Origin: Corallococcus sp. AS-1-6
GTDB lineage: Bacteria; Myxococcota; Myxococcia; Myxococcales; Myxococcaceae
Direction of reading: 5' to 3'
Assembly (NCBI RefSeq): GCF_020037015.1
Contig: NZ_JAIQDE010000029.1
Location: 1 to 64,000, forward strand
DNA length: 64,000 nt
Position numbers and translations under genes: made by a program. Positions within the stretch are counted from its first letter, which is position 1, and the number at the start of each line of letters is the position of its first letter. Shown piece after piece: positions 3-16,267 of this stretch. The notes beneath the pieces were generated by a model. The model was given only the letters and a program-made list of their open reading frames with translations, ran no database searches and had not been told where the DNA came from.

Positions 3-326
3 CCATGCCCGGAAGCGTCCGCCGCGCGCCGCTACGCCGGCAACCCCTCACGGCACGTCGTTGGCCGGACGGATACGGTGCTCCAGGCCGCGGCCAGCAA
101 GGAAGCGCTGAAGGAGAGGAGGCCGCGAGTGGACTGGGCGGGGTTGCTCAGGAGGACGTTCGACTTCGACAAGTTCGTCTGCGTGAGGTGTGGAGGCAGG
201 CGGCGGGTCTTGGCATATGTGAAGCAGGCCGCAGGGGTGCGAGCGATTTGGGAGCACCTGGGGTTGCCTGCGGCAGGTGCGAGCCTGCCCCCGGCGAGAG
301 GGCCACCCCTGGCTGCGGGGTGTTGA
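3..326 (+). pseudogene. 3' fragment of an IS91-type transposase (copy A)
   Basis: The reading frame is open from the window edge to a stop at 326. It encodes the C-terminal part of an IS91/Y2-type transposase: the Trp-Ala-Gly-Leu-Leu-Arg-Arg-Thr-Phe segment, a Cys-x-x-Cys-Gly-Gly-Arg motif, and the Ile-Trp-Glu-His-Leu-Gly-Leu-Pro segment. No catalytic Y2 region is present inside the window, and the first ~28 codons do not resemble the family, so this is at best a remnant. A second, more decayed copy lies at 3405-3760. The family call is from remembered C-terminal motifs, not a search. Confidence 0.6.
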
Positions 327-432
327 GTCTCAACGTGCGGCTCATGGGCTCCCCGTCAGCGTCCATCACCTCCCGCTCTGCTCCCGCCCGCTACGCCCAA
401 GAGGGCTCCTGTTCTTCCTATGTTCTTCCGCA
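88..432 (+). repeat. Direct repeat, IS91-like end, copy A
   Basis: This stretch matches 3528-3870 in the same orientation, covering the last transposase codons and about 110 bp of downstream non-coding DNA. By eye most bases agree, with scattered substitutions and small indels. Homology stops near 432/3870, which probably marks the original right end of the insertion sequence. The pair brackets the two-gene defence operon at 568-2972. Confidence 0.75.
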
Positions 433-567: not shown

Positions 568-1560
568 TCAACCTTGCACTTTCGTTTGGTGCTTCAAATT
601 ACAGCAAGCAGTCTCCGCGCCTCTCCGGCAAACCCCTTCAAGGAATCGAATAAGGCAGCTTGGCGTATCGGCATATTGGGATAGCTGTGATAGTGCAGTT
701 TTTCGCTGCACCCCCAACGCAACATGCCGCGCAGCCGGAAAGTACTTGGGCGGCTGACTGTTAATGCCCTCGACGAGAATATTAATAAACTTACACAGAA
801 AGTCGATCAGAAACTTCCCCCTGTATGCAACTGCAGGGGGGTTGGATGTGATATCGGCAACCCAATCGCGTATCGCATCGACATCAACATTGTTAGATTC
901 TCGCCCAAAGCGCTGATCTAAAGTGCTAATTGAGTAATTCTCTGCGCAGTGGGGAAATTGCATGTCGACGAACTCCCAGGCCTGTAGGCTCTGTAACTTC
1001 AATACGGAAACTTTCTCCCCTTTTGGTTTTGACTGGGCCTCCTTTTTTCTCTGTTGCTGAAGCCAGCCATTCAACTCCCCTGTTGCGCGATAGAACTCGC
1101 CTGCGGCTGTATCGTAAAGACCGAGCGCAACACCCATGGCCGTCTCCCCTTGTGTAAGACCAAACTCACTCTCGAAAATGCGCTCAATTGCTGTGCGGGA
1201 GACATACATATTCTCAATGGAGTAGCACGGAGTCACATATAGACGCTCGTCAGAGGCCTCCGGGGGAATGAAGTCCCTGTCAACAAAGAACGCGCTCCTC
1301 AGTTTCGCGTATCGCCCCCCATCGGCATTGAGCACCAACTGAAGGAGGTGCACAACGCCATCGCGTCCTCCTACAGCAAAAGAACGACACTTTTCCGGCC
1401 TTGCTATGAGGTTGATCCTTATGGAGTAATATTTAAGGTCCTCACCCTCGAAAAAGCAAAACAGGGCATCTGGCTCGGTCGCTACTGCCTTTATAAAATT
1501 CCGCCAAGCAACAGCGTAGCTTTCCCGAGCAAACCTCAACTCTCCCGCCCGGTCGCTCAC
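568..1560 (-). CDS. DUF4435 TOPRIM-like protein, AriB-like subunit of a PARIS defence system
   Basis: A 330-residue protein. In PARIS systems the DUF4435 partner (AriB) is held by an ATPase and released as a toxic TOPRIM nuclease when a phage anti-restriction protein is sensed. Motifs seen here: Phe-Phe-Glu-Gly-Glu-Asp at 36-41 (the acidic first TOPRIM-like strand), Val-Asp-Arg-Asp-Phe at 93-97, and Tyr-Ser-Ile-Glu-Asn at 113-117, all hallmarks of DUF4435. It starts with GTG and overlaps the stop of the ATPase gene by 4 bp (GTGA), indicating translational coupling. Base composition is visibly more A+T-rich than the surrounding chromosome, suggesting transfer. The family call is firm; the PARIS assignment is inference from the gene pair. 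Confidence 0.78.
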   Translation of the reverse strand: MSDRAGELRFARESYAVAWRNFIKAVATEPDALFCFFEGEDLKYYSIRINLIARPEKCRSFAVGGRDGVVHLLQLVLNADGGRYAKLRSAFFVDRDFIPPEASDERLYVTPCYSIENMYVSRTAIERIFESEFGLTQGETAMGVALGLYDTAAGEFYRATGELNGWLQQQRKKEAQSKPKGEKVSVLKLQSLQAWEFVDMQFPHCAENYSISTLDQRFGRESNNVDVDAIRDWVADITSNPPAVAYRGKFLIDFLCKFINILVEGINSQPPKYFPAARHVALGVQRKTALSQLSQYADTPSCLIRFLEGVCRRGAETACCNLKHQTKVQG

Positions 1561-2972
1561 TCGCCCCCCTCCTTAGCCTCTTCGGCATTGGTTCCCGGGA
1601 AGGGGCTTACATTCAGTTCGCCGGCGAATTGGTCCAAACTATTTTCAAAGATGAACGGGGAGTGTGTCGCGACAACCAGCAGTCTGCAGCGTCGCGACGC
1701 CACGATATCCTCAAGGAGTCGACGCTGCCATTCAATCGAAAGAGACAGTTCGGGCTCATCGAAAATCACTACATATTCATGCTGGGCATCCAGGTATAGT
1801 CGTGAGAATATTGAGACAATCTGTTTTTCTCCTGAGGATAGTCGCTCAAGTTCAACAGGGCGCCCCGTTCGCCTCTGGATGATGCCGATGTTTAACTTGC
1901 TTTCGTTGTATATTACCTCCTTGTCTTCGAGCAGGTAATAGTTGACGACCCTGACGAATTCCTTGATTGTGTTGTCCTTCTCTCGCTGCTGTTCATACAC
2001 TTTTCCGAGATTCGAGAGAAAATATACGAGTGGAGAGTACTGTTCTCCGTGTATTCGCCCTGACTTGATTAATTCAAGGATGTGGTTTTTGTGTCGCTCG
2101 TCAATGTTTTCCCCTACTCGATCGAGAACAATGCGCAGAGTATCTGCATCTTGAATGCTATCTCGCATGTCTGGGGTGACCTGAATGCCGTCAATTAATT
2201 CTGTAAGAATCCGCCCGTTCACTTTTGAATACCACTCAATGGATGAGTCGCGAATCTGCGTCGTAATCCTGTCTATTCGCTGTTGCACATCGCCCATGCC
2301 GAATTGAATCAACTGCTCAGCATGGGGCAGGCTCGATTCCAGATAGCCCAGCGTATGGAGGTCTTCCTCAATGCGGCGATATGTTGGAAAATACAAAACC
2401 GGATGCGGGTAGAGGGTGCGCAACTCCTGAAGCGGATTTGCGGACACTCCGGACATTCGCGGCCCCATTTCATCTCGCGCAAACTGCCTAAGTCGAAAGG
2501 CGAGTTCATCCCGCGCAATCCCTGTTGCCTTGCTTGCTAATATCAGTTGAGGCAGTTCAGCCAGCGCGGAACGGGGGAGTCCTCTTTGGGCAATCTCAAG
2601 TAGATTCTGAAAGCCACTCTCGCCAATCGCATCGAAAATGCGAGCAAGCCATCTATACGGACCGCGACTGGCTTCTTCAAGTAGTTCCAGTTGCGCAATA
2701 AGTGGATGCTTGAACCTTGAGTATGGGGCCGAGACTTTTTCACCCGAGTCAAACTCAACAATGATCTCTTCAAACTCTAGCCGCCCCAGGCGACTAGTCT
2801 TCCCTGTCAGGGCGTTGTAGAGTGCATTGAGAACAGTGGTCTTGCCCGAGCCGTTTGAGTCAATCAGGATTTTGACTTGGCTGTCGATTTCGAGGCAGAC
2901 ATTTCTGTCGCCGTGTAGGCCTCTGATTTTAAATCTCCTCAGTTGCCGGCCTTCTGCTTTTGGAATGCTCAT
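1557..2972 (-). CDS. AAA/ABC-type ATPase, AriA-like subunit of a PARIS defence system
   Basis: A 471-residue ATPase of the SMC/OLD/AAA_15-like class. Residues 38-46 form the P-loop (Asp-Ser-Asn-Gly-Ser-Gly-Lys-Thr-Thr), residues 378-382 the ABC signature Leu-Ser-Ser-Gly-Glu, 405-408 the Walker B Asp-Glu-Pro-Glu, and His437 the switch histidine in Ala-Thr-His-Ser-Pro. The central ~300 residues are helical, as in coiled-coil insertions. The first P-loop glycine is Asp, which is unusual. The ATG is preceded by GGGAG at normal spacing. The downstream DUF4435 gene overlaps by 4 bp. No TOPRIM or nuclease domain is fused, which argues against an OLD/GajA nuclease. An AAA_21 protein with DUF4435 outside PARIS remains possible. 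Confidence 0.78.
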   Translation of the reverse strand: MSIPKAEGRQLRRFKIRGLHGDRNVCLEIDSQVKILIDSNGSGKTTVLNALYNALTGKTSRLGRLEFEEIIVEFDSGEKVSAPYSRFKHPLIAQLELLEEASRGPYRWLARIFDAIGESGFQNLLEIAQRGLPRSALAELPQLILASKATGIARDELAFRLRQFARDEMGPRMSGVSANPLQELRTLYPHPVLYFPTYRRIEEDLHTLGYLESSLPHAEQLIQFGMGDVQQRIDRITTQIRDSSIEWYSKVNGRILTELIDGIQVTPDMRDSIQDADTLRIVLDRVGENIDERHKNHILELIKSGRIHGEQYSPLVYFLSNLGKVYEQQREKDNTIKEFVRVVNYYLLEDKEVIYNESKLNIGIIQRRTGRPVELERLSSGEKQIVSIFSRLYLDAQHEYVVIFDEPELSLSIEWQRRLLEDIVASRRCRLLVVATHSPFIFENSLDQFAGELNVSPFPGTNAEEAKEGGE

Positions 2973-3404: not shown

Positions 3405-3760
3405 GCGACGGTGGTGCCTGCGCCTCGGACAAACCTCACGAGGTTCCACGGCGTCTTCGCTCCAGGCGCGCAACCGCGGCCATTTCTGCTCCCCCAAGCA
3501 GAAGAGGAGGAGGCGAGCGTGGCGCCCCAGGCAGCGGCCAGCAAGGAGCCGCTGAAGGAGAGGAGGCCGCGAGAGGACTGGGCGGGGTTGCTCAGGAGGA
3601 CGTTCGACTTCGACATGTTCGTCTGCGTGAGGTGTGGAGGCAGGCTTGAGGGTGTTGGCGTAAGTGAAGGCAGAAGGATGGGTGAGAGCGATTTTGGAGC
3701 ACCTGGGGTTGCCCACGGTGAGTGCGCACCTGCCCCTGCGCGAGGGCCACCCCAGAGCGG
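3405..3760 (+). pseudogene. Decayed IS91-type transposase fragment (copy B)
   Basis: The frame starting near 3411 encodes Val-Pro-Ala-Pro-Arg-Thr-Asn-Leu then Thr-Arg-Phe-His-Gly-Val-Phe-Ala-Pro-Gly, a characteristic C-terminal stretch of IS91-type transposases, and continues to the Cys-x-x-Cys-Gly-Gly-Arg motif. A frameshift after Gly-Gly-Arg (near 3641) and an in-frame TAA in the resumed frame (near 3660) break it. The resumed frame again gives Ile-Leu-Glu-His-Leu-Gly-Leu-Pro up to the TGA near 3760. No N-terminal HUH/Y2 region is found upstream. Confidence 0.7.
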
Positions 3761-3870
3761 GGTGTTGAAGCTCAACGTGCGGCTCATGGGCTACCCGTCA
3801 GCGTCCATCACCTCCCGCTCCGCATCCGCCCGCTACACCCAAGAGGGCTCCTGTCCTTCCCATGCTCCGC
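3528..3870 (+). repeat. Direct repeat, IS91-like end, copy B
   Basis: Partner of the repeat at 88-432, same orientation. It covers the transposase 3' end and about 110 bp beyond it. Past 3870 the two flanks have nothing in common. Confidence 0.75.
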
Positions 3871-5482: not shown

Positions 5483-5580
5483 GTGTTCAATGACATCCAG
5501 GTTCGACGCCTTGGGCGCGCCGGTTTCTGGAACGGGCAGATGTTGCTGACCGTCGGGGGCGCTGTGAAAGTCGACAGGCG

Positions 5581-6897
5581 TCAGCCACACGCCTCGCACA
5601 ACTGATTGAGCAGGGGGACGACACTCCTGGGCTCATGGGGGGCCAGCGCCCAGAGGGAGGGCTGGCACATCTTGCCGTCGCAGATGTGGGCTGCGATGCC
5701 TCGGCACTTGCGACAGGTGACGGTGCGACTGGCGGGGTGGTCGCAAATGGCGCACCGCTTGACCCGCGAGGCCGCGTGGAGGGGACGCGGGGGCCGCTTC
5801 GAATCCTCCAGCTCCTCCTCGAAGGCCTTCATGCCTTCGCGCACGGCGTCCACCAGATCATACATCCGCAGGGCGCCTCCGAAGATGGCGGTGTCGAAGA
5901 GGATGACGGGCGAGAAGCCCTCCTGGAGGAGCAGGTAGTTGAGGAGCAGCATGGTGTTGAGGCGGCCGTTGGCGTCCGCGTAGAAGTGGCCCACGTGGAG
6001 CGCTCGGATGACGCGCACGATGGCACGCAGCTTCAGCTCCTGCTTCGCCTCCTTGGCGCTCTGCTGCGCGGCCTGGTCCCGCTCCAGGTAGTAGCGCGCG
6101 AAGAGGGCGTTGACCTTGCCCTTCGCCTCCCGGGGTTCGTAGGCGGTGCCCCAGAGCAACTGGCTGCCCCGGCTGCGTGTGAGCAGGCTGGTGGCCCAGT
6201 CTCGCTCTACCCAGTGCTCCAGCACGTCGCGGGGCGCGCCCAGGTCCTTCATGATGGTCTTGAAGGTCCCGATGTCGCCATCGTTGCTCAGCTCCAGCAG
6301 GCTCTCCCAGTCCACCTCGTGGCCCTGCACGTCGATGGGGAAGTTCGTGTAGTGGCTGAGCTCGTGCGGCACGGGGACGAAGCGCTGGCGGGCGCGTTCG
6401 GACACCACGTCGTTGAGCTTGAGCACACCCCTGGTCACGGCGGCGTGCATCTCGTGGTAGCGGTCGAAGTCCACCCGGTCATCGGGCGCGGCCGGGTGCT
6501 TGAGCCAGGCGGTGAAGGCCTTGGTCATGGCGTTGTAGAAGCCCGGGGACTGTTGCCGGTCGAAGATCATCGCCTGGTGTGTATTGCTGCTGCCGTGGTG
6601 GCGGCCCTCGATGAAGAGCTTCCACCAGCGGTCGCGCGGCAGCTTGAAGACCGCGGAGGAGCCTTCGGCGGAGGCGTTGGGCTCCAGCTTGTCCAGGGCG
6701 CAGCGGACCTTGCTCGCGGCGATGACGACGTCGAAGGCGGGCCGCTTCGCGGCGACCGCCTTCTCCAGGAACATCGCGGAAATGACCTTCAGGTCGCTCG
6801 TCTTGCGCTGGGCGACGAGCGTGTCCACCCACGTGCTGAAGCCGTCGAGGTCCGTGGTGTCATGGGTCACGTCGGCATCGGGGTCTGGAATCAGCAT
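5581..6897 (-). CDS. Fic-domain-like protein with C-terminal Cys-rich (zinc-finger-like) tail
   Basis: A 438-residue protein. Residues 304-312 read His-Phe-Tyr-Ala-Asp-Ala-Asn-Gly-Arg, matching the Fic motif HPFx(D/E)GNGR with the catalytic His, acidic residue, Asn, Gly and Arg kept, and Pro and the first Gly changed. A helix-rich region follows, as in Fic folds. Fic proteins usually transfer AMP or another phosphate-containing group onto target proteins. The last ~60 residues hold seven Cys plus several His (Cys-x-x-Cys pairs near 395 and 410), likely a zinc-binding module. The N-terminal ~290 residues are unfamiliar. ATG 6897 is chosen because GAGG sits 6 nt upstream; a GTG at 6963 would add 22 residues. 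It is transcribed divergently from the deiminase. No antitoxin gene is adjacent. Confidence 0.65.
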   Translation of the reverse strand: MLIPDPDADVTHDTTDLDGFSTWVDTLVAQRKTSDLKVISAMFLEKAVAAKRPAFDVVIAASKVRCALDKLEPNASAEGSSAVFKLPRDRWWKLFIEGRHHGSSNTHQAMIFDRQQSPGFYNAMTKAFTAWLKHPAAPDDRVDFDRYHEMHAAVTRGVLKLNDVVSERARQRFVPVPHELSHYTNFPIDVQGHEVDWESLLELSNDGDIGTFKTIMKDLGAPRDVLEHWVERDWATSLLTRSRGSQLLWGTAYEPREAKGKVNALFARYYLERDQAAQQSAKEAKQELKLRAIVRVIRALHVGHFYADANGRLNTMLLLNYLLLQEGFSPVILFDTAIFGGALRMYDLVDAVREGMKAFEEELEDSKRPPRPLHAASRVKRCAICDHPASRTVTCRKCRGIAAHICDGKMCQPSLWALAPHEPRSVVPLLNQLCEACG

Positions 6898-7022
6898 GCG
6901 CAGCCTCGAGGAGGGATGTCGCGGAGCCTGGAAGGTGTAGCCGGATTGTGGGAATCCCTCCACGGCCCATAGCGTCGGGCCCGGTCGCCCAACTCCGCGC
7001 GGTCCCGTCTCCAGGAGAACCG

Positions 7023-9209
7023 ATGTCCCGGCGAGTCACCGTTCAACTGATTGACGAGCAATATGAGCCCGTCGCCAACGAGGCGGTCCGCTTCGTGGAG
7101 ACAGGCCTGACGCTGCGCACGAACGACCAGGGCGAGGCGGTCTTCGAGTACGCCACTCCGACGGCCACGCTGGAGTACCGCTTGCGCTCGGGGGCCGTGG
7201 CGACGCACCGGTTGAAGGAGCCGCTCTCCCGGGAGACGACGGTGGTGCTGGGCGTTGAGGCGCTCGTGTACGCGACCCTGTTCCTCGACGCGGACCGCGA
7301 CGGCACGTTGACCTCGGCGGGGCTCGACCGCTGGGACTGGGGGCCGGGGGAAGGGAAGAAGGGCGCCATCGTCCTGTGCAACCTGGACGCGGACAACGGC
7401 AACCCACGGGTCGCGGACAACGCGGATGACGTCATCAACGGCGGGGACGATGAGCAGGAGATCGCCCCCCTGGAGGTCCGCAGGCAGACCCGCTACCGCG
7501 CGGAGGTGACGTGCACGCTGTCCCTACAGAAGCCGGGCGACAAGAACCGCTTGCGCATCTTCAACGGACGCACCCGGGGGGCCCGGGCCCTCATCGGTCC
7601 GAGCGCCGGCGCGTCGTGCGTGCTCGACCTCCAGAACGCCGTGCTCCGACTGGGGATGGAGGCCGTGCGCTTCGACGAGTCGTTGAAGGAAGAGGACATC
7701 GTCTTGCTGCTGACGACGACCTCCCCCGAGGGCACCGTGGTGCAGCGCGCGCGTGTGCGGGTGGCGCCCTGGATGATGCAGCATCACCTGGAGGCCCCCG
7801 AAGCCGTCTATGTCATCCAGCTCTCCGGCCAGAACAACACCACCTTCCGCTCGGACCTGAAGGTCATCCTGGAGGGGGTAGGGCTGCCGCTGGAGGAGAT
7901 TCCTACCGTCCTCGGGGATCGCTGGGGGCAGGACAGCCTGGAGATCGGCTCCTCCAACCTTCCCCGGCGCGGAATGCACGCGATGCTCGGCGCGACGCGA
8001 AGGAGTGGGATGATCCAGTATTTCAAGACGCAGGGTCGTGGCGTCGGGATGGGCTACTTCGACTTCCACCACCGGCAAATCAGCCATTCCGCGTCCGACA
8101 GCGACATGAACAAGCTGGGCAACCTGGAGGTGACGCCTCCAGTGAGGGACGCACGGGGGCGGGCCTACCCTTGGGGACGCATCTATTACGGCACGGACGT
8201 GCGCAACGAGCGCCGCCAGCTCGACCCGAACATCCGCGCGTTCCTCGCGGCCCAGCGGGTGCAGGCCCCCATCGTCATCGACACCAGTTGGCTGGACGTG
8301 GGGCACGCGGACGAGCTCCTCTCGTTCGTGCCCGCGGAGGATGGGGGCTGGCTCTTGTGTCTGCCCAGCCCTGAGCTGGCGCTGGACATGCTTCAAGGCG
8401 TGATGGAGGTCGCGCCGCAATCCGTGATGCTGGAGGGGCGGAGCATCCAGGGCGTGGAGGGGGAGGGCTTCGATGAGCCCGTCAACACCACCGTCAAGGC
8501 GTTCTTCGAGGGGGCGGAAGGCGGGGGGGCTCCGGCGCGGAGGCCGCACGGGATGTCTTCATTATTCTCGGGCCCGCCGCCGCGCATGACCGGGGTGTCC
8601 TCCATGCGTCCCATGGGCGGAATGCCCTTTCCGGGCCGGACAGGGGCCCCACCAGGATTCATGATGGGCGAGGGGGCGATGCACGGCTTCTCAGGAGGCA
8701 TCTCCGAAGCGCCGACGCTCAAGGCGACGCTGCGCTTCAACGAGACCGCTGCCAAGGGCATCCATGGGCTGGTGGAGCAATTGAAGAGCGAAATCGGTCT
8801 GACCGAGGAGCGGATCCTCTATCTGCCCATGCTCTACCGGCAGGGGCGGATGAAGGGGGCGACGACCGTGTTCGCGAACATGGTGAACATGCTCGTGCTG
8901 GGGCGGACCTGCGTCATGGCGAAGCCGTTTGGCCCCATGCTGGATGGCGCTCAGCGCCTGCAAGGGCCCTACGCGAAGCTTCTGGGGAAGTACAAAATCG
9001 AAGCGACGGACGTGCCGATGAACGGCACGTTCGACCTGTTCGAGGTCTACGTCCGGACCCTGTTCCGCCGGAACGGGCTTACCGCGCGCTTCATCGACGA
9101 CTGGAGCGCGTACCACAACAAGGGGGGTGAGGTGCACTGCGCCACCAACACCCGGCGAGCCCTGACGCTCAAGCGCTGGTGGGAGTACGTGCCGGGCGAC
9201 ACGCATTGA
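7023..9209 (+). CDS. Protein-arginine deiminase, eukaryotic-type three-domain architecture
   Basis: A 728-residue protein expected to convert peptidyl-arginine to citrulline with calcium. The N-terminus is a beta-sandwich-like domain. Around residues 90-125 is a middle domain with Asp-Ala-Asp-Arg-Asp-Gly and Trp-Asp-Trp-Gly-Pro, like the PAD_M calcium-binding domain. The catalytic domain keeps the PAD active-site residues: Asp304 in Arg-Trp-Gly-Gln-Asp, His428 and Asp430 in Val-Gly-His-Ala-Asp-Glu, and Cys706 in Gly-Glu-Val-His-Cys-Ala-Thr-Asn. Stretches such as Asn-Met-Val-Asn-Met-Leu-Val-Leu-Gly and Lys-Pro-Phe-Gly-Pro match vertebrate PADs. A Gly/Met/Pro-rich insert of about 60 residues (near 500-560) splits the catalytic domain. 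No signal peptide is visible. ATG 7023 has AGGAG at good spacing. Confidence 0.93.
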   Translation: MSRRVTVQLIDEQYEPVANEAVRFVETGLTLRTNDQGEAVFEYATPTATLEYRLRSGAVATHRLKEPLSRETTVVLGVEALVYATLFLDADRDGTLTSAGLDRWDWGPGEGKKGAIVLCNLDADNGNPRVADNADDVINGGDDEQEIAPLEVRRQTRYRAEVTCTLSLQKPGDKNRLRIFNGRTRGARALIGPSAGASCVLDLQNAVLRLGMEAVRFDESLKEEDIVLLLTTTSPEGTVVQRARVRVAPWMMQHHLEAPEAVYVIQLSGQNNTTFRSDLKVILEGVGLPLEEIPTVLGDRWGQDSLEIGSSNLPRRGMHAMLGATRRSGMIQYFKTQGRGVGMGYFDFHHRQISHSASDSDMNKLGNLEVTPPVRDARGRAYPWGRIYYGTDVRNERRQLDPNIRAFLAAQRVQAPIVIDTSWLDVGHADELLSFVPAEDGGWLLCLPSPELALDMLQGVMEVAPQSVMLEGRSIQGVEGEGFDEPVNTTVKAFFEGAEGGGAPARRPHGMSSLFSGPPPRMTGVSSMRPMGGMPFPGRTGAPPGFMMGEGAMHGFSGGISEAPTLKATLRFNETAAKGIHGLVEQLKSEIGLTEERILYLPMLYRQGRMKGATTVFANMVNMLVLGRTCVMAKPFGPMLDGAQRLQGPYAKLLGKYKIEATDVPMNGTFDLFEVYVRTLFRRNGLTARFIDDWSAYHNKGGEVHCATNTRRALTLKRWWEYVPGDTH

Positions 9210-9250
9210 CGGCCTCCGCGCTCAATCCGCAGAGGAGCCTGAAAACACCA

Positions 9251-9295: not shown

Positions 9296-9324
9296 CAGTG
9301 TCCCCGACGGGATTCGAACCCGTG
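9296..9324. repeat. Attachment site, left (displaced tRNA-Glu 3' end)
   Basis: These 29 bp are identical to 16239-16267 and include the T-arm and acceptor 3' strand of tRNA-Glu. The sequence diverges immediately after 9324, where no D-arm or anticodon arm follows, so this is not a tRNA gene. Confidence 0.9.
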
Positions 9325-9448
9325 GAGGAGGGGTACCCTAAACCCGCGACGGCACACGCCTTTCGCTGAATCGTGAGTGAATCCGGGCACTTCGAATCCA
9401 CGGGGCAGTTCCCGCCAGTCCCGCCTGTTGCCCGGAGTCCCCTCCAGT

Positions 9449-9469
9449 CTTGGAGACATTTTGGAGACG
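9449..9469. promoter_or_regulatory. Candidate integrase arm-binding site, left arm
   Basis: The 21 bp hold two TTGGAGAC units separated by ATT. The same arrangement with one mismatch occurs at 16153-16173, just inside the other element end. Arm-type sites of tyrosine integrases are typically short repeats on both sides of the core. The match is seen directly; the role is inference. Confidence 0.5.
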
Positions 9470-9625
9470 GCACCGGAGGCGGCGCGCTATCGATGTGAGC
9501 CTGCCTTGTCTCATTGCCGCCTGAATCCGGCGAGCGATGATCGTTTGGAGGGCATGAAGCGGCTGCTCGCGAGGCGTTCCTGCCCTGATGCCGCCGAGAC
9601 TCACACGGGTGAGACGGCTGGACGT

Positions 9626-9961
9626 CTAGAAGTGCTTGTTGGGTATCAGCCAGTCATCGCTCGGGGAAGCGCCCTGCTTCAGCGCGTTTCCGTAGTACGA
9701 GGTCAGGCTCGTCACTGCGAGGTGCAGAGCATACGCCTCGTCGTCCCCCCAGGGGCGGCTTGGGCAGTACTCATCGCCCATGCCGGGGGTCTTGATGTAA
9801 TGACTTTGCTCCCACCAAACCCCCTTCCCGCCTACGCTTTCATACAGTCGAATGGTGATCCGGGGGGTAAGCGTACCAAGCTGAAATTCATACTGGCTGA
9901 GCAGCTTGCGAGTCTGGGAGAGGTACTTGTCTTCGAGTGCCGTTTCGATTGTCCATGGCAT
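9626..9961 (-). CDS. Hypothetical protein, 111 aa, island cargo
   Basis: A soluble 111-residue protein starting at ATG 9961, rich in aromatic residues (Trp-Trp, several Tyr) and without a recognised motif, signal peptide or membrane span. Codon positions look like real coding sequence and base composition is less GC-rich than the core genome. Only a weak purine stretch precedes the start. It lies on the opposite strand to the large cargo gene. Function unknown. Confidence 0.55.
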   Translation of the reverse strand: MPWTIETALEDKYLSQTRKLLSQYEFQLGTLTPRITIRLYESVGGKGVWWEQSHYIKTPGMGDEYCPSRPWGDDEAYALHLAVTSLTSYYGNALKQGASPSDDWLIPNKHF

Positions 9962-10088
9962 AATTTTATCTTATCTTTCTTTCTCCCCTCATAAGGGCGA
10001 GGGGACTGTGCTGACGACCCGGATCAAGCGATCCTGACTTGCGTTGCCCCCGCAGGCGCTCGCGGGGGCAAGGAGCCCATGGTTGGTG

Positions 10089-10346
10089 CTACTGGGGTGG
10101 GATAGGCCCCTCAAACTCCAGGAAGATCTCCATGGCAGTTTCCTCAATGCCCTGCGTCACTTCGATCATATTGACGACCCTGTAGGTGCCCGAGCCTCGA
10201 AGCAGAAGGCGGGTGTTCTCAGGGTCGCGGACGAAGTTCCTGTCCGCGATCTGGGCTCTGGTTCGGACCAGACTGTAGGTTCCTGGTCCTTGCCACGCAT
10301 GGATTCGGGCTCTGATCTCTCGGCTCCGCAACTCGATGGGCTCCAA
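10089..10346 (-). CDS. Hypothetical protein, 85 aa, possibly 5'-truncated
   Basis: The frame encodes an 85-residue protein from a TTG at 10346. It stays open about 27 codons further upstream, to a TGA near 10425, without any ATG or GTG, yet those extra codons read as plausible protein (Leu-Asn-Pro-His-Tyr-Arg). The real gene may therefore have lost its 5' end, or TTG is used. No domain is recognised. It is convergent with nothing and divergent from the large cargo gene at 10450. Confidence 0.4.
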   Translation of the reverse strand: MEPIELRSREIRARIHAWQGPGTYSLVRTRAQIADRNFVRDPENTRLLLRGSGTYRVVNMIEVTQGIEETAMEIFLEFEGPIPPQ

Positions 10347-10449
10347 CCGGTAGTGGGGGTTGAGGGGGGCACAGTGGGATGTGGCGGGAGCGGGGGCGCC
10401 TCATCAAGGTGCTGCAACACCACCGCTGTACTACGCTGTGTGTGGAGGC

Positions 10450-12228
10450 ATGATGCGCGACCACGCTTGGTTCGAGATGAGGGACATCCGGAAGCGCTGG
10501 CTCTCTAAATTGGTGTGGATTCCGCTGCGCGCATACGAGGAGAGCCGTACCGGCGAGCACGGGCACGTCGGCTGTGAAGAGGAGGTCTTCGCCTTGGGCT
10601 CGGTGGCAGTTCCCACCAAGCACCGTCAAAGGGCTGAGGCGCTCGATTGGTCGGACATCGCCCTCGGCCACACACAGCGCTCTCTTGTGCTTGCAGCCGG
10701 ATACAAGCCCGCCGACGTATTCCAGGAACCGGAGGGGGTCGACCTAGGCATCGACCTGGTCTTGGACCAGGGGTTCGACGGTGCCGAGAAGCACGTGTGG
10801 CACCTCCACCAGGACCTTGTCATCGCCCTCGGTCTCCTGCGCGAGGGGGACAACTGGGTGTGCCCTCAGGAGGGCTACAACGAGGTTGCACACCTGAAGC
10901 GGAGCGCGTCAGGAGCGCCGGTGCGGCTTGAGATTCGTGCGGAGCACCTCGGCGACTATCTGGCGGCACGCGACATGGCCCTTTGGGTGGCGACGTACCG
11001 CATTCGGAGCACCGTCGTGGAGGACGCAAGCCACATCCCGTGGCACTCAGAGGATCTGCGGGAAACGGCGGGTGGGGACAGGTTCGAGGCGCGCGTTCGC
11101 GCAATCCATGAAGGCGGCTCCTTGTTCGGGGCGACGACGGCCGTCTTCCACATGGGGCGGACGGACGTCGATGCGGAAGAGGACGTGCCGGTTCTTGGCG
11201 TCCCCGACGCATCGAGCATTCGGACGCGCTCGTGGAGTGTGAAGTCTCGGCGGCGCAAGGTCTTCGACGTCTCGGGCGAACTCTGGCGCACGGAGTGGTT
11301 CGAACCTGCGGCAGCGAGCCCTCGCGTCCGGGGCGACAAGGTCCCATCGGCGTGCTTCTTCATCACAGACCCGTCGGGGAGGCGGACGCCCGCCGACGAC
11401 CTCCGGAACCGGAACGACGAGGAGAGTCGGTGGTTATGGTTCCGGCCGGCTGTCATCGGAGAACTCGCACAGCGCCGTGGTGGCTCGTTGCGGTGGTACA
11501 CGCGCGACACAGGGGAGGTCGCCCCCGTCCACGGTTACGGCATCCACTTCGGAGTGAACCAGAAGGAGTTGATCAACGCCTACGCGCCCGACATCGCCCG
11601 TCTCCCGGAGTGGCAGAAGGTCATTTGGATGGGGTTCAACATTGCTCCGGACGGGAAGGTGAGCGAGGAGTTGCTCGACTCGCAGATGCGAGCGGAGCCC
11701 GCCGAGACGAGTGCGCCGGAGGAGCGGTTCGCGATGGCGCTCACTCGTCTTGACGCGGCTTGCAGGGTCCGCTGGAAGGCCCCGCTGTTGCGGCAGCATC
11801 CCCAAGCCCCAAGCATCCTTCTCGCAATTCACCGGTTTCGCGCCCTGAACCCCGAAGGGTTGCTGGCCCTCGCCAAGGACATCGCGCGGCTGACGGCGGA
11901 TAGCATTGATGTTGGCCCCTTGCAGGCGCTGGTCCCCTTAGCGAAGGGAGAGAAGCGCAGTTCCATCAAGTCTCTGGAGCGTGCTCTCGCTACCATTGTT
12001 CCGCCCGAGGAAGCGAGGCGCCTGACGAGTCCGCTCGTAGGCGTATACGAGCTTCGGCTGGGCGATGCCCACCTGCCGGCCGCCGACATGAACAACTCCT
12101 TTACGCTGGCAGGCATTGACCCTTCGGTCTCCACCATCCGTCAGGCCATGCAGATGATGGAGACGATCGCGAAGACCTTCGACGCGATGTCGGACGTGCT
12201 CGCGAAAAGCACGCTGGCGCCTGCGTAA
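10450..12228 (+). CDS. Unknown 592-residue protein, main cargo of the tRNA-Glu element
   Basis: I do not recognise this family. The protein is soluble, without signal peptide or membrane spans. Residues ~1-230 look mixed alpha/beta with many Trp, His and acidic residues (for example Asp-Asn-Trp-Val-Cys-Pro). A middle part has a Trp-Leu-Trp-Phe segment and a conserved-looking Gly-Tyr-Gly-Ile-His-Phe-Gly. The C-terminal ~150 residues are helical. ATG 10450 or 10453 follows TGGAGG; the longer frame from 10360 has no better start. Being the largest gene in a minimal integrative element with no structural genes, it is a candidate defence or conflict protein by context only. Confidence 0.7.
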   Translation: MMRDHAWFEMRDIRKRWLSKLVWIPLRAYEESRTGEHGHVGCEEEVFALGSVAVPTKHRQRAEALDWSDIALGHTQRSLVLAAGYKPADVFQEPEGVDLGIDLVLDQGFDGAEKHVWHLHQDLVIALGLLREGDNWVCPQEGYNEVAHLKRSASGAPVRLEIRAEHLGDYLAARDMALWVATYRIRSTVVEDASHIPWHSEDLRETAGGDRFEARVRAIHEGGSLFGATTAVFHMGRTDVDAEEDVPVLGVPDASSIRTRSWSVKSRRRKVFDVSGELWRTEWFEPAAASPRVRGDKVPSACFFITDPSGRRTPADDLRNRNDEESRWLWFRPAVIGELAQRRGGSLRWYTRDTGEVAPVHGYGIHFGVNQKELINAYAPDIARLPEWQKVIWMGFNIAPDGKVSEELLDSQMRAEPAETSAPEERFAMALTRLDAACRVRWKAPLLRQHPQAPSILLAIHRFRALNPEGLLALAKDIARLTADSIDVGPLQALVPLAKGEKRSSIKSLERALATIVPPEEARRLTSPLVGVYELRLGDAHLPAADMNNSFTLAGIDPSVSTIRQAMQMMETIAKTFDAMSDVLAKSTLAPA

Positions 12229-12400
12229 GGCGCTGAGCCAAGGCCGCTCGCTGGGGGAGGAGCATCTGCGGCTGCGCTGCGTCTCGAACAGGAAAATCTC
12301 CTGGCCCTGGCGGGATAAGGGCAGAGGAGAAGGCTTCGTCCCCGTACCTGTCACGGTGCGGGCGAGGCGTGATCAGTCGGGCGGGAAGGGGGTGAACGCC

Positions 12401-12514
12401 ATGCTGAGCGCCGTGAGGAAGCTGCTGGCCTCGACACTCACCCGAAAGATGATGGCGGCCGTTGTCTTCGCGCTGGCCGAGCATCTTCGGGAACGGGTGA
12501 GGCGCGGGCAGTAG
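12401..12514 (+). CDS. Possible 37-residue protein
   Basis: ATG 12401 follows a GGGAAGGGGGTGA purine run and encodes a short amphipathic, Arg-rich helix with a hydrophobic middle (Met-Met-Ala-Ala-Val-Val-Phe-Ala). It may be a small membrane-associated or phage-derived protein. There is no family evidence. Confidence 0.3.
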   Translation: MLSAVRKLLASTLTRKMMAAVVFALAEHLRERVRRGQ

Positions 12515-12623
12515 TGCCCGGAGAGGAGCCCGGCTGCGGATGGAGCTGGGCTCTTCTCGCCCTTGGAGAAGGTCGCATCGTCGAGGTGCGGCTACGTCAC
12601 TCACCCCAGGGGGGAATTTCACG

Positions 12624-12815
12624 ATGACCAAGGCCATCAGCCTCACCGCCGAGCTGGCTGAGGTGAGGTGCGCCATTGAGGGGGCGCGCTTCATCGCGGA
12701 TGCACTGGCCACGCACTCGCTGGACAGCCGAGAGCAGGAGCTACAAGCGCCCGTCTCCATCACCGCCATCCTCGTGCTGGCGGCCGCTCGGCCTCCAGCA
12801 CCTTTCTTCAGCTAA
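12624..12815 (+). CDS. Possible 63-residue protein
   Basis: ATG 12624 is preceded by AGGGGGGAA at reasonable spacing. The protein begins with an Ala/Glu-rich helix (Ala-Glu-Leu-Ala-Glu-Val-Arg-Cys) and looks genuinely coding to about residue 53. The last residues turn Pro-rich, and a +1 frame there reads Leu-Gln-His-Leu-Ser-Ser, so a 3' frameshift is possible. Function unknown. Confidence 0.4.
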   Translation: MTKAISLTAELAEVRCAIEGARFIADALATHSLDSREQELQAPVSITAILVLAAARPPAPFFS

Positions 12816-12928
12816 TTAGGGACACCCCCTAGGGTTCGCGGCCCGAACGGCCGTCTTCCTCGGCGGCCTGCCCCGCCTTCAACGAGGATCGCCGCGCCCA
12901 TCCGGGCGTACGAGGAGGCGAACGCAAG

Positions 12929-13738
12929 ATGAGCACCGCCCGTACATCCAAAGGCCCCTCACCCACCAAGCCGCTGAAGCGCATCAAGGACGAGAACGAG
13001 GCCAGGAGCTACTTGCTGCGGCGGGTGAAGGGGAAGGATGGGATGGAACAGCGCACCGAGGAGCAGTTCGTTGAACTCCTCAGGTACACGGACACGGCCG
13101 CAGCGCTGGCCTCTACCACCAGCGCGCTCTACCCCGTGCTCAACTGGTTGATGTCGGGGGCGATCCTGAGCACCAGGGTCCCCGAGCAGGCCCTGAACGA
13201 CTACGCCATGCCGCCCCAGCCACTTCCCGAGGAGCTTCAACGCCTGGCCCCGTACCTCCACGCCTCCAAGCAGGTCCTGGATAAGCTCCATGCCTTGATG
13301 CGCGCAGTGGAAGAGCTGGCCTGGAGCTTCATCGCCCTGCGTCACGTCTGCGAGGAACTGGGCATCGACCGACAGCTCCTTCGAGGATGGACAGGGGAGC
13401 ACCAGGTGCTCGCAGCCATTGCGCAGCTCGCGGAGAAGAAACTGGAACTGAAGCCGAAGCTGGGGCCCAAGGACCTGGAGGTCCTGGTGCAGTTCGCGGG
13501 GCTGCGTCCAGCGAGCATCGACTTTATGACCGAGCCCAAGGGGCTCGACCTGCGACGCGAGGCGTGGAGCGTCGAGCTGAAGAAAGTGCGCAAGGCCTTT
13601 CTCTCGCGACTCCGGAGCTTCCTCGCCGGGAAAACATCTGGCTCTGGCCTGGAGGTCCACGACCCGAAGCGACACCGTGTACACCGTAACCGCCCCGTGA
13701 AGACGACGAAACGGCGTAGGCGGGCAGCCTCCAAGTAG
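12929..13738 (+). CDS. Hypothetical 269-residue helical protein with basic tail
   Basis: ATG 12929 follows GAGGAGGCG at good spacing. The protein is mainly alpha-helical and leucine-rich, with no membrane span or signal peptide. It ends in a strongly basic tail (Lys-Thr-Thr-Lys-Arg-Arg-Arg-Arg), suggesting nucleic-acid contact. No family is recognised. It is on the same strand as the 592-residue cargo gene, 700 bp downstream. Confidence 0.6.
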   Translation: MSTARTSKGPSPTKPLKRIKDENEARSYLLRRVKGKDGMEQRTEEQFVELLRYTDTAAALASTTSALYPVLNWLMSGAILSTRVPEQALNDYAMPPQPLPEELQRLAPYLHASKQVLDKLHALMRAVEELAWSFIALRHVCEELGIDRQLLRGWTGEHQVLAAIAQLAEKKLELKPKLGPKDLEVLVQFAGLRPASIDFMTEPKGLDLRREAWSVELKKVRKAFLSRLRSFLAGKTSGSGLEVHDPKRHRVHRNRPVKTTKRRRRAASK

Positions 13739-13771
13739 GTAGGGGCGGTGCCGACTTCAAGCAGCCCGGAA

Positions 13772-13861
13772 CCCATCGGCCAATTAGAGTCCTCACCGGC
13801 CCGGGACCACCCCGCACTCCGTCACATCCGCGCCCATCGGCCAACAAGAGGCTTCACCGGC
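13772..13861. repeat. Pair of 29-bp imperfect direct repeats
   Basis: CCCATCGGCCAA followed by AGAG and TCACCGGC occurs at 13772-13800 and 13833-13861 (25 of 29 bases identical, 61 bp apart). A weaker third copy (TTCCATCGGCAA...AGAGAG) starts near 13888. They lie between the convergent 269-residue gene and the HNH gene. They may be protein-binding iterons. Confidence 0.55.
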
Positions 13862-13976
13862 GTTCTCGGCTACGTGACGGCGCACGTTTCCATCGGCAAC
13901 CGCAGAGAGACAGTAACCAGCAGCCATCAGGAGGTCAGCGGGGAGCAGGTCATCTACAGGACCAACTCGACTCCCC

Positions 13977-14480
13977 TCAGCCCACTCCCTCACCTTTGTT
14001 GTTGGTCTCCACTACCTTCACCGCTTTGCTGGTTGCCCAATCCTTCAGGCGGCTCTTAATCATGTGGCAATTTCCGCAGAGAAAACGAAATGTCGAGAGG
14101 GGCACCTTCCGTCCTTCGACATGGTCGAGGTGCCAGCACCGCACGTCCGGGAACCCACAGTCTTCGCACCGGTACCGTGCGCGCCTTGCTGCGTGCAGAG
14201 CGTTCTTCCCATAGTTTTTGCGCTCCGACCCATTGGTCCGCGTATAGAGCTGCCGAGCGACAAGCCGTTCGCGCGCCTCAAGATGAGGCTCTGCCGCTTT
14301 CAGGCGAGCCCGCGGGAGATTCGTGGGGCCCTGGGTTTCGTAGAGGTAGCACAGCGCCGTCTTGAGACTGCCCTGCACCGCAGATGGTGCGGCCTCAACA
14401 CGGCCCTTGATGAACGACGGGTTGTCGAACCGCTCAGATGGAATCACGAACTCATCAGGTACCTCGATTCGATGCTCCAC
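13977..14480 (-). CDS. HNH endonuclease domain protein
   Basis: A 167-residue protein. The C-terminal half has a treble-clef HNH module: Cys-Glu-Asp-Cys-Gly, then His-Leu-Asp-His-Val-Glu-Gly, then Cys-Gly-Asn-Cys-His. HNH proteins are metal-dependent DNA nucleases found in phage packaging, restriction and homing. The N-terminal half is unfamiliar. GTG 14480 is chosen because GGAGGAGAG lies immediately upstream with ideal spacing; longer frames to 14591 lack support. It may be a defence nuclease or an element maintenance function. Confidence 0.8.
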   Translation of the reverse strand: MEHRIEVPDEFVIPSERFDNPSFIKGRVEAAPSAVQGSLKTALCYLYETQGPTNLPRARLKAAEPHLEARERLVARQLYTRTNGSERKNYGKNALHAARRARYRCEDCGFPDVRCWHLDHVEGRKVPLSTFRFLCGNCHMIKSRLKDWATSKAVKVVETNNKGEGVG

Positions 14481-14551
14481 GGCTCTCCTCCTGGGGCAAT
14501 ACCGGGCTTCCAGCGGTTGAAGTGCTCTGCGCCTCGCCCTCTTGCCACAGC

Positions 14552-14689
14552 TCAGTCTGAGGGCGGCAGCGAAGATGGCCCAGGAGCACATTCGTCAGCG
14601 ATGAAGATCTCCTCCGGCTGCCGCTCATCCAGCAACACCGCCACCATGAGCCTCGTCTTCATGAGGTTCTGATGCAGGACGGGATTCAT
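14552..14689 (-). CDS. Possible 45-residue protein upstream of the HNH gene
   Basis: ATG 14689 opens a short minus-strand frame ending at 14552, 71 bp before the HNH start. The middle (Leu-Met-Val-Ala-Val-Leu-Leu) and an acidic segment look protein-like, but the ribosome site is weak and no family is recognised. Confidence 0.28.
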   Translation of the reverse strand: MNPVLHQNLMKTRLMVAVLLDERQPEEIFIADECAPGPSSLPPSD

Positions 14690-14715
14690 TCCAGCAGTGA
14701 CGATGGGAGGCCGCT

Positions 14716-15054
14716 GTGTCCAGCGTAGAGGCCGGGCTGCGTGACCTCATCCGCACCCTGGTGCGCGAGGAGCTGGTGGCGCTCAACGGGGATGCAGCTC
14801 ACCGCGAGCTGGTGCAGGCGGGGCCTCCCGGGAGTACCAGCCCGGACGGCCAGCCTCCGCTCGACAAGGCCATCTACACCGCCGAGGAGGTGTCCCGCCT
14901 TCTCGGGTGCAGCCTCAAGGCCGTGTATGCGAAGGCCTCGCGCGGCCAGCTTCCAGGCGTCTTCCGCGTGGGCCGCTCGCTGCGATTCCGTGGGCGCGAG
15001 TTGTTACCGTTCATTCTCGAAGGGCGTGTGCCGTCGCCGAGGAGGTCTCGGTGA
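14716..15054 (+). CDS. Excisionase-type helix-turn-helix protein
   Basis: A 112-residue protein. From residue ~53, Tyr-Thr-Ala-Glu-Glu-Val-Ser-Arg-Leu-Leu-Gly then Val-Tyr-Ala-Lys-Ala-Ser-Arg-Gly and Phe-Arg-Val-Gly-Arg-Ser match the MerR-like DNA-binding fold of AlpA/Xis proteins (helix_turn_helix_17). The N-terminal 50 residues are a predicted helix plus linker. It starts at GTG 14716 after GGGAGG. Its TGA overlaps the integrase ATG (TGATG), so the two are translationally coupled. Likely role: directing excision and/or regulating the integrase. Confidence 0.82.
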   Translation: MSSVEAGLRDLIRTLVREELVALNGDAAHRELVQAGPPGSTSPDGQPPLDKAIYTAEEVSRLLGCSLKAVYAKASRGQLPGVFRVGRSLRFRGRELLPFILEGRVPSPRRSR

Positions 15055-16211
15055 TGAGCGTGAAGGTCAGGGAGTACAAGAAGCGCGGCAAGAGCGGATG
15101 GGAGGTGGACATCATGTTCAAGTGGCCCGATGGCGAGCTGTACCGTGAGCGCGTGAAGGCTCCGGTGGGCTCCAAGTCGGGCGCGAAGGTGTGGGGCGAG
15201 CGGCGGCAGGCGGAACTGCTCACTCGCGGTAAGCAGGTCAAGGAGGAGATGAAGACGAAGCGGGAGGTCCCCACGGTGGAGGAGTTCTTCCCCCGGTTCA
15301 TCGAGGGCTACGCGAAGGCCAACCGGCAGAAGCCGTCCGGGGTGGACAGCAAGGAGTCGCATTTCCGCAACCACCTGCTGCCCCGGTTCGGGACGAAGCG
15401 GCTGGACGCCCTCGCTGACGAGGACGTGCAGAAGCTCAAGGCGGCTCTCCAGGACCGCAGCGTGAAGACGGTGAACAACTGCCTCTCCACGCTCTCGACG
15501 ATGTTGAAGGTCGCGGTGAAGTGGAAGGTCATCGAGCGGATGCCGGTGGAGGTCGAGCACCTCAAGGCGGCGGACAGCACCGTCGATTTCTACGAGGTGG
15601 AGGATTATGAGCGACTGGTACAAGCCGCCGAGAAGCTCGGCCCGGCGCAGCAGCTCGCAGTACTGCTCGGCGGTGACGCGGGCCTGCGCATGGGGGAGAT
15701 GATCGCGCTGGAGTGGAGCGACGTGGACCTCAAGCGCGGGCTACTCAAGGTGCAGCGCTCAGACTGGAAGGGGCACGTCAATCTCCCCAAGGGCGGGCGG
15801 CCCCGTGAGGTGCCGCTGACACGCGCCCTGGCGTCGGCGCTCGTGCGTGCCCGTCACCTCCGAGGTGAGCGGGTGCTCTACCGCGAGGATGGGACGCCGG
15901 TGTCCCAGCAGACGGTGCGGAGCTGGATGTCCGCAGCGCAGAAGCGGGCCGGGCTCAAGGTGACGGGGGCGCTCCACATCCTCCGCCACACCTTCTGTAG
16001 CCACCTGGCCATGCGGGGCGTGCCTCCTCTCTCGATCAAGGAGCTGGCAGGCCACCGCAGCCTCCGCACCACCATGCGGTACATGCACCTGGGGAAGGGG
16101 GAGAAGCACCTCGCTATCCAGATGCTGGAGGAGGGGCGGGATGCGTCTCCGGCTTGGAGACATTGTGGAGACGAGAAGGAGCCAGAAAGCACCAGGGCCG
16201 GAAACCGCTGA
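15054..16211 (+). CDS. Tyrosine recombinase (integrase) of the tRNA-Glu element
   Basis: A 385-residue phage-type integrase. It has an N-terminal arm-binding region (1-70), a SAM-like core-binding domain (about 73-165) and a catalytic domain (about 180-350). Catalytic residues are visible: Arg212 in Gly-Leu-Arg-Met-Gly-Glu, Lys246, His308-x-x-Arg311, His334 in Ala-Gly-His-Arg-Ser, and nucleophile Tyr343 in Met-Arg-Tyr-Met-His. The set is complete, so it should be active. ATG 15054 overlaps the excisionase stop. The stop codon is 27 bp from the attachment core, and a candidate arm site lies inside the 3' coding end. Confidence 0.93.
   Translation: MSVKVREYKKRGKSGWEVDIMFKWPDGELYRERVKAPVGSKSGAKVWGERRQAELLTRGKQVKEEMKTKREVPTVEEFFPRFIEGYAKANRQKPSGVDSKESHFRNHLLPRFGTKRLDALADEDVQKLKAALQDRSVKTVNNCLSTLSTMLKVAVKWKVIERMPVEVEHLKAADSTVDFYEVEDYERLVQAAEKLGPAQQLAVLLGGDAGLRMGEMIALEWSDVDLKRGLLKVQRSDWKGHVNLPKGGRPREVPLTRALASALVRARHLRGERVLYREDGTPVSQQTVRSWMSAAQKRAGLKVTGALHILRHTFCSHLAMRGVPPLSIKELAGHRSLRTTMRYMHLGKGEKHLAIQMLEEGRDASPAWRHCGDEKEPESTRAGNR
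16153..16173. promoter_or_regulatory. Candidate integrase arm-binding site, right arm
   Basis: TTGGAGAC-ATT-GTGGAGAC, a one-mismatch copy of 9449-9469 in the same orientation, placed within the integrase 3' coding end and 66 bp inside the core repeat. Confidence 0.5.
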
Positions 16212-16232
16212 AGTTTCAGCAGCTTCCGGCCC
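16195..16232 (-). terminator. Terminator hairpin after tRNA-Glu
   Basis: Arms of about 18 bases starting GGGCCGGAA pair with a few mismatches around a short loop. On the minus strand GGTGCTTTCTGG follows. It is the element-borne counterpart of the hairpin at 9251-9287. Confidence 0.5.
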
Positions 16233-16238
16233 CAGTTA

Positions 16239-16267
16239 CAGTGTCCCCGACGGGATTCGAACCCGTG
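16239..16267. repeat. Attachment site, right (within tRNA-Glu 3' end)
   Basis: 29 bp identical to 9296-9324. It covers the acceptor 3' strand and T-arm of the intact tRNA-Glu and three bases beyond the tRNA end. Confidence 0.9.

What the first reader, a model, noticed from the sequence alone, without database searches (positions are those of the whole stretch)
7023..9209. Complete three-domain protein-arginine deiminase in a myxobacterium
It has the PAD N-terminal-like, calcium-binding middle and catalytic domains, with Asp304, His428, Asp430 and Cys706 all present and strong similarity to vertebrate PADs. Published work proposes that vertebrate PADs came from bacteria by horizontal transfer. 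A myxobacterial member could inform that history and give a bacterial citrullinating enzyme.
Basis: partly seen in the sequence, partly recalled or inferred. Interest (0 to 1): 0.72.

Follow-up and report, generated by a model that had tools for sequence, protein, structure and literature searches.

The report
Non-exported myxobacterial arginine deiminase
A predatory soil bacterium carries a rare relative of the animal enzymes that turn arginine into citrulline; it lacks the export signal of its bacterial cousins, has a different front domain, and may be a weapon rather than the three-domain animal-type enzyme it was taken for.

Summary
The gene is real (7023-9209, 728 aa): PAD catalytic domain, PAD middle domain and all four catalytic residues (D304, H428, D430, C706). 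It is not shown to be a three-domain PAD. Residues 1-80 fold as a transthyretin/carboxypeptidase-regulatory-like domain; nothing identifies them as PAD_N, though my sequence control for PAD_N had no power. Ligands of calcium sites 1 and 3/5 are kept; those of site 2 and the site-4 switch Asp are lost.

It is not an ordinary myxobacterial PAD. 49 of 49 assessable canonical rows have lipoprotein signals; this protein, its one close relative (Corallococcus praedator, 60-62%) and two divergent ones have none. Trees (UFBoot/SH-aLRT 97-100/94-97) put the pair on the cyanobacteria+animal side, away from 32 or 33 canonical myxobacterial PADs (long branch, attachment unresolved).

It is divergently paired with a Fic-like gene in a 3.7-kb strain-specific insertion. 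The one close Fic homologue found lies beside a truncated copy of this PAD. A remoter one carries an eCIS_core domain; another signal-less myxobacterial PAD is fused to an Ulp1-type protease. Best reading: an active deiminase used as an injected effector. Activity is likely; delivery is inference. New variant of a known kind.

The parts
7023..9209 (+). protein-arginine deiminase gene, 728 aa plus stop
   Evidence: AGGAG at 7013-7017
7023..7262 (+). residues 1-80: seven-stranded transthyretin/CarboxypepD_reg-like domain, no signal peptide found
   Evidence: models; fold matches; Pfam (weak); signal heuristic
7263..7748 (+). residues 81-242: PAD middle domain (PAD_M); ligands of Ca sites 3/5 kept
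   Evidence: Pfam; ligands
7749..9194 (+). residues 243-724: PAD catalytic domain
   Evidence: Pfam; VIA Z 48.8 over 82-724
7932..7934 (+). catalytic Asp304 (PAD4 D350)
8304..8312 (+). His428 and Asp430 (PAD4 H471, D473)
9138..9140 (+). nucleophile Cys706 (PAD4 C645)
8517..8708 (+). residues 499-562: Gly/Pro/Met-rich insertion, predicted disordered; among the rows displayed only C. praedator shares it
   Evidence: (12 rows displayed in each)
8949..9032 (+). about residues 643-670: second insertion, shared with C. praedator; G056 has a longer one at this place
   Evidence: rows displayed
5581..6897 (-). divergent partner gene, 438 aa, Fic-like motif HFYADANGR (residue 304); Pfam Fic only E 0.2, under cut-off
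6898..7022 (.). 125-bp divergent intergenic region between the Fic-like gene and the PAD gene
5483..9232 (.). segment not found in genus relatives between the FAD-oxidoreductase gene and the tRNA-Glu terminator (7 relatives assessable): strain-specific insertion holding both genes

Best explanation
A protein-arginine deiminase of a divergent type, made in the cytosol without a Sec or lipoprotein signal. Most likely it deiminates peptidyl-arginine through C706 with D304, H428 and D430 (likely, not shown). Calcium, if used, would act through sites 1 and 3/5 without the site-2/site-4 switch of animal enzymes (inferred from residues). Most likely it is an effector delivered into other cells (prey or competitors) by a contractile injection system or another non-Sec route, possibly with the N-terminal transthyretin-like domain as docking part, and with a divergently encoded Fic-like protein as second effector (inferred). 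Delivery, target and the role of the Fic-like protein are not shown.
For: Enzyme: Pfam, PDB, fold and catalytic residues. Not exported like its canonical cousins: a lipobox signal in 49 of 49 assessable canonical myxobacterial rows against 33 of 980 shuffles; none in this protein or in C. praedator's. Distinct lineage; AU rejects joining the pair to the 26-row group (p 0.024) or the 10-row group (p 0.013). Pairing: G025's Fic homologue (70%) lies divergently beside a PAD start (31 residues, 22 of 31 identical to C. praedator's, tblastn 2.6e-8), with no further PAD sequence found in the 11-kb stretch examined. Effector company: G003's homologue of the Fic-like protein carries eCIS_core at 4.1e-24; the G068b PAD, with no lipobox signal, is fused to Peptidase_C48 (26.2 bits, cut-off 20.7); the G056 PAD lies between a peptidoglycan-binding-domain gene and a HEAT-repeat gene. 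The genome holds two TssC/VipB (T6SS sheath) loci. A transthyretin-like domain of a T6SS VgrG binds an effector (PMC10433429, two passages read).
Against: No injection-system gene among the 9 nearby window ORFs scanned with Pfam. No Fic-like match in the C. praedator genome, so pairing rests on two genomes, one with a truncated PAD. The two genes are divergent, not one operon. The transthyretin-like fold is widespread and shows no function. The cyanobacterial rows that I take as three-domain type also lack a lipobox (5 of 5), so lack of export alone fits an ordinary cytosolic enzyme. Grouping with G056 and G068b is weak (91/70) and joins long branches; with PAD_C alone G068b does not join the pair. 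No paper on PAD effectors showed in the listings.
Confidence: 0.42

Rival explanations
1. An ordinary intracellular PAD that modifies the cell's own proteins or is a regulator. The lack of a signal reflects a cytosolic role as in three-domain cyanobacterial and animal PADs, and the Fic-like neighbour is incidental or regulatory.
For: The cyanobacterial rows that I take as three-domain type show no lipobox in 5 of 5, and after C. praedator they are the nearest rows by path. The Fic-like gene is not found in C. praedator.
Against: Presence in 2 of 16 genus genomes, within a strain-specific insertion next to mobile DNA, fits cargo better than housekeeping. The fastest-changing parts are the N-terminal domain and the loop (45% identity each, against 61-68% elsewhere).
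Confidence: 0.33
2. A fast-evolving canonical two-domain myxobacterial PAD that lost its signal peptide; its place near cyanobacterial and animal PADs is a long-branch or composition artefact.
For: The branch to the pair is long (1.0-1.3 changes per column), the groups of the AU tests were named after the tree was seen, and the p values are modest. It shares the His pair in the domain linker with most canonical rows displayed.
Against: The split holds with long branches removed (99/97) and with PAD_C alone (97/94). It shares VNMLVLG and KPFGP with PAD4, found in none of the 9 canonical rows displayed, and NLEV, found in 1 of those 9.
Confidence: 0.17
3. A catalytically impaired or decaying PAD whose lost calcium ligands make it inactive.
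For: Site-2 ligands and the switch Asp are missing. A remnant exists in G025. PAD-like rows with altered catalytic Cys exist: 9 of 15 cyanobacterial second-type rows read Ser.
Against: Open frame, intact tetrad, GC3 0.89, ribosome site; NG86 dN 0.33 against dS 0.71 to C. praedator, where high GC3 may depress dS (the YN00 estimate failed).
Confidence: 0.08

Closest known systems
Human PAD4 and other vertebrate PADs
   Same: Catalytic tetrad, PAD_M and PAD_C folds (Z 48.8, 32% identity over 518 residues); Ca1 and Ca3/5 ligands
   Different: No recognised PAD_N; Ca2 ligands and switch D388 lost; two insertions; transthyretin-like N-terminus
   Same: No lipobox; nearest rows by tree path after C. 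praedator; 32-33% identity
   Different: They keep site-2 ligands (D369 in 5 of 5) and mostly D388 (4 of 5), and their N-terminal region has no match to ours
Canonical two-domain myxobacterial and actinobacterial PADs
   Same: PAD_M plus PAD_C, site-2 ligands not conserved, His-rich linker in most displayed rows
   Different: Lipobox signals (49 of 49 assessable canonical myxobacterial rows), first large loop absent from the rows displayed, separate side of the tree
G068b PAD-Ulp1 fusion and G056 PAD (unnamed Myxococcaceae genomes)
   Same: No lipobox signal, same side of the tree, effector-like company
   Different: Ca1 ligands lost; no Pfam hit like our N-terminal domain; very long branches
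Porphyromonas gingivalis PPAD (recalled)
   Same: Bacterial citrullinating enzyme
   Different: Recalled as a different deiminase family without PAD_M; not compared here

Membership tests
Protein-arginine deiminase (PAD, PF03068) | PAD catalytic domain over the curated cut-off | tested here: met
   259.2 bits against 25
Protein-arginine deiminase (PAD, PF03068) | Asp-His-Asp-Cys catalytic residues | tested here: met
   D304, H428, D430, C706
Protein-arginine deiminase (PAD, PF03068) | PAD_M domain | tested here: met
   35.4 bits against 24.8
Protein-arginine deiminase (PAD, PF03068) | Calcium-dependent citrullination of protein arginine | not testable with these tools
   needs an assay
Three-domain animal/cyanobacterial PAD (clade Ai of PMC8826395) | PAD_N cupredoxin-type domain | tested here: inconclusive
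   No Pfam or profile match, but the control with cyanobacterial N-termini also found nothing; the domain alone matches transthyretin-like folds. Leans against.
Three-domain animal/cyanobacterial PAD (clade Ai of PMC8826395) | Calcium site 2 ligands and switch Asp (PAD4 D388, PAD2 D389) | tested here: not met
   E351 to S, D369 to G, S370 to A, N373 to R (gapped at 369-370); D388 to G342 in both alignments
Three-domain animal/cyanobacterial PAD (clade Ai of PMC8826395) | Branches within the cyanobacteria+animal clade | tested here: not met
   PAD4 plus cyA is a clade without the pair, 100/100 and 100/99; the pair as their sister is not rejected, p 0.18
Canonical exported two-domain bacterial PAD | Signal peptide (lipobox in 49 of 49 assessable canonical myxobacterial rows) | tested here: not met
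   none found in this protein; home-made heuristic, control 33 of 980 shuffles
Canonical exported two-domain bacterial PAD | Groups with canonical rows | tested here: not met
   split 100/97, 99/97, 97/94; AU p 0.024 and 0.013, groups named after seeing the tree
Fic/DOC family, for the partner gene | Pfam Fic over cut-off | tested here: inconclusive
   13.0 bits against 24; motif HFYADANGR present (motif pattern recalled)
T6SS/eCIS effector | Delivered by a contractile injection system | not testable with these tools
   only indirect signs

The most novel reading that the evidence does not exclude
Citrullination as a bacterial injection weapon: some myxobacteria keep a non-exported class of PAD effectors (this one with a transthyretin-like loading domain and a Fic-like partner; a relative fused to an Ulp1-type protease), and this class branches nearer to the animal/cyanobacterial PADs than any canonical myxobacterial PAD sampled here.
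Probability: 0.3. Interest if true: 0.82.

Novelty: new variant of a known kind. Interest (0 to 1): 0.56.

Why it matters
PMC8826395 describes two PAD types: three-domain in animals and late cyanobacteria, two-domain in fungi and other bacteria. This protein fits neither well: on the cyanobacteria+animal side of the tree, without a recognised PAD_N, without calcium site 2, with a new front domain, and outside the animal/cyanobacterial clade. If active, it shows which calcium sites are dispensable; if injected, it makes citrullination a tool of bacterial conflict and gives a testable reason why such genes move between lineages.

Tried and rejected
Three-domain reading: dropped for lack of any support, though PAD_N is not formally excluded (control failed).

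PAD on plasmids, phages or viral contigs: the same four Streptomycetaceae plasmid records in two searches, no phage match, no viral contig (the pattern-based first step can miss relatives). The Fic-like protein has no plasmid match.

N-terminal domain as a shared sorting tag: a search of 92 family genomes gave, besides itself, only the C. praedator copy with strong support (3.1e-12); the rest were 0.008 or worse. The true G025 remnant scored only 0.237 there, so this search is weak. No tag family shown.

Is the PAD inside the integrase element? No: the 29-bp direct repeats at 9296-9324 and 16239-16267 bound it downstream of the PAD.

PAD4 R374 (substrate-backbone contact, recalled): the column differs between my two alignments, so I make no claim.

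Rows left out: broken or fragment rows L040, L138 and L172 and remote rows L168, L169 and L170 before the tree; then 27 of 83 rows, mostly near-copies, of my choice. G060 and G186 fragments were not fetched. A script failed (redone), one search stopped at IQ-TREE, and an IQ-TREE run hit its time limit and was not used. No fungal PADs and only one animal PAD (pieces of human PAD4) were used. The signal count leaves out four rows cut at contig ends (L006, L016, L033, L167), broken rows, three Streptomycetaceae rows, G284 and the two divergent myxobacterial rows G056 and G068b, which have no lipobox.

Full report
What is there. The ORF 7023-9209 encodes 728 aa. Pfam finds PAD at 8.3e-77 in three pieces and PAD_M at 1.1e-8. 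phmmer against the PDB gives human PAD4 at 1.5e-57, then other PADs. D304, H428, D430 and C706 match the PAD4 tetrad (PAD4 numbering set from recalled residue numbers, as chain index minus 3). The AlphaFold model (44 rows, pLDDT 86.4, pTM 0.81) superposes residues 82-724 on PAD4 with Z 48.8 and rmsd 2.0. Residues 499-562 are predicted disordered.

The front domain. Residues 1-80 are not matched by PAD_N in Pfam or by a profile of cyanobacterial PAD N-termini. Modelled alone (two rows, pLDDT 82.7) they match transthyretin-like and similar domains: 9hfj Z 11.0 and 5aq0 Z 10.6. The C. praedator copy hits CarboxypepD_reg at 9.4e-5, under its cut-off; our own copy reaches only Big_1 at 0.14. A control profile of cyanobacterial N-termini found no PAD chain in the PDB, so sequence absence proves little. 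The claim of a three-domain PAD is unsupported, not excluded.

Calcium. Kept: Q303, E307 and E369 of site 1; N120, D122, D124, D132, D135 and D143 of sites 3/5, with E146 at D179. Lost: E351 (S305), D369, S370 and N373 of site 2, and D388 (G342) (ligand lists partly recalled). PMC8826395 (section 7) reports loss of sites 2 and 4 and switch Asp to Gly in fungal and actinobacterial PADs. In my alignment 40 of 53 canonical myxobacterial rows keep D at the switch column, against that pattern.

Distribution. PF03068 is found in 40 of 96 family genomes; in the genus in 2 of 16, G000 and G023. It rings in 58 of 384 relatives and in 22 of 339 genomes of the phylum of G240, which is cyanobacterial by PsaA/PsaB (1 of 80 handles). 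By protein, 54 of 195 phylum genomes match at E <= 0.001; the G023 copy is 62% identical over the whole length, and the other long matches are 26-36%.

Cyanobacterial rows. I call six loci cyA (491-535 bits; L133-L138) and fifteen cyB (190-242 bits; L139-L153). I take cyA as the published three-domain type because of these scores and because its five intact rows keep the site-2 ligand D369; PAD_N was not shown in them.

Export. A lenient home-made heuristic finds a lipobox signal in 49 of 49 assessable canonical myxobacterial PADs, against 33 of 980 shuffles. It finds none in this protein, C. praedator, G056, G068b or the five intact cyA rows.

Phylogeny. With 56 rows, {this pair, G056, G068b, cyA, PAD4, cyB, G409} is split from 37 rows (33 myxobacterial, 3 actinobacterial, G284) at 100/97. 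Without three long-branch rows (53 rows) the split is 99/97, and with PAD_C only (54 rows) 97/94. The attachment within that side is unresolved: sister of cyA+PAD4 with G056/G068b at 85/61; outside cyA+PAD4+cyB at 94/80. AU tests: pair plus 26-row group p 0.024, pair plus 10-row group p 0.013; pair plus cyA+PAD4 p 0.18, not rejected. Groups were named after the tree was seen. cyA with PAD4 stands at 100/99 or better, so the donor question is unchanged.

Neighbourhood. The divergent gene 5581-6897 is Fic-like (HFYADANGR; Pfam Fic 13.0 bits, under cut-off). Seven of 189 phylum genomes match it, the own one included, and only G025 closely (70%). There a 31-residue PAD start lies 185 bp away, divergently, with no further PAD sequence in the 11-kb stretch. 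G003's homologue has eCIS_core at 4.1e-24. C. praedator has no Fic-like match, but its PAD starts at base 177 from a contig end. Of 15 other genus genomes, 9 hold the FAD-oxidoreductase gene at 95-96% identity and 7 of these have the tRNA-Glu terminator on the same contig, from 25 bp (G018) and 52 bp (G016) to about 2.1 kb (G028) beyond the match, with other short cargo in some. None of the 7 has the PAD, and none matches the Fic-like protein, so 5483-9232 is a strain-specific insertion.

Company of related PADs. G068b: PAD, PAD_M and Peptidase_C48 in one 884-aa protein; G056: PAD between PG_binding_1 and HEAT_2 genes. Both keep the tetrad and lack site-1 ligands.

Verdict. Enzyme likely, calcium mode altered, delivery inferred. 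Literature: no paper holding 'protein-arginine deiminase' with 'myxobacteria' or with 'type VI secretion' was found; the listings showed no PAD effector (46, 83 and 90 list only part of the papers found). PMC8826395: abstract, passages, sections 6, 7, 9 and part 1 of 10 read. PMC10433429: two passages read. Other papers: search listing only.

Noticed in passing
window 568-2969 (-): AriB (DUF4435, 3.7e-27) and AriA-like ATPase (1.2e-34): a PARIS-type defence pair at 50-51% GC in a 69% GC window; a G017 locus matches both window 130-336 and 3575-3778, which suggests flanking repeats.
   Followed up: partly
window 9296-16267: About 6.9-kb element with a tyrosine integrase (14907-16211) integrated at tRNA-Glu: 29-bp perfect direct repeats at 9296-9324 and 16239-16267, plus a duplicated terminator.
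   Followed up: partly
L176:10290-12944 (unnamed Myxococcaceae G068): PAD fused to an Ulp1-type C48 protease domain, no lipobox signal, site-1 calcium ligands lost.
   Followed up: partly
L177:8075-12190 (G056): PAD gene between a PG_binding_1 gene and a HEAT-repeat gene, an effector/immunity-like layout.
   Followed up: no
L124:5815-7800 (G003): Homologue of the Fic-like partner with an N-terminal eCIS_core domain (4.1e-24).
   Followed up: partly
L139-L153 (cyanobacterial second-type PADs): 9 of 15 rows read Ser at the catalytic Cys column, and several have changed His or Asp: probably inactive PAD-like proteins.
   Followed up: no
L109-L113 (genus relatives): The FAD-oxidoreductase/tRNA-Glu interval carries different short cargo in different genomes: an insertion hot spot.
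   Followed up: partly
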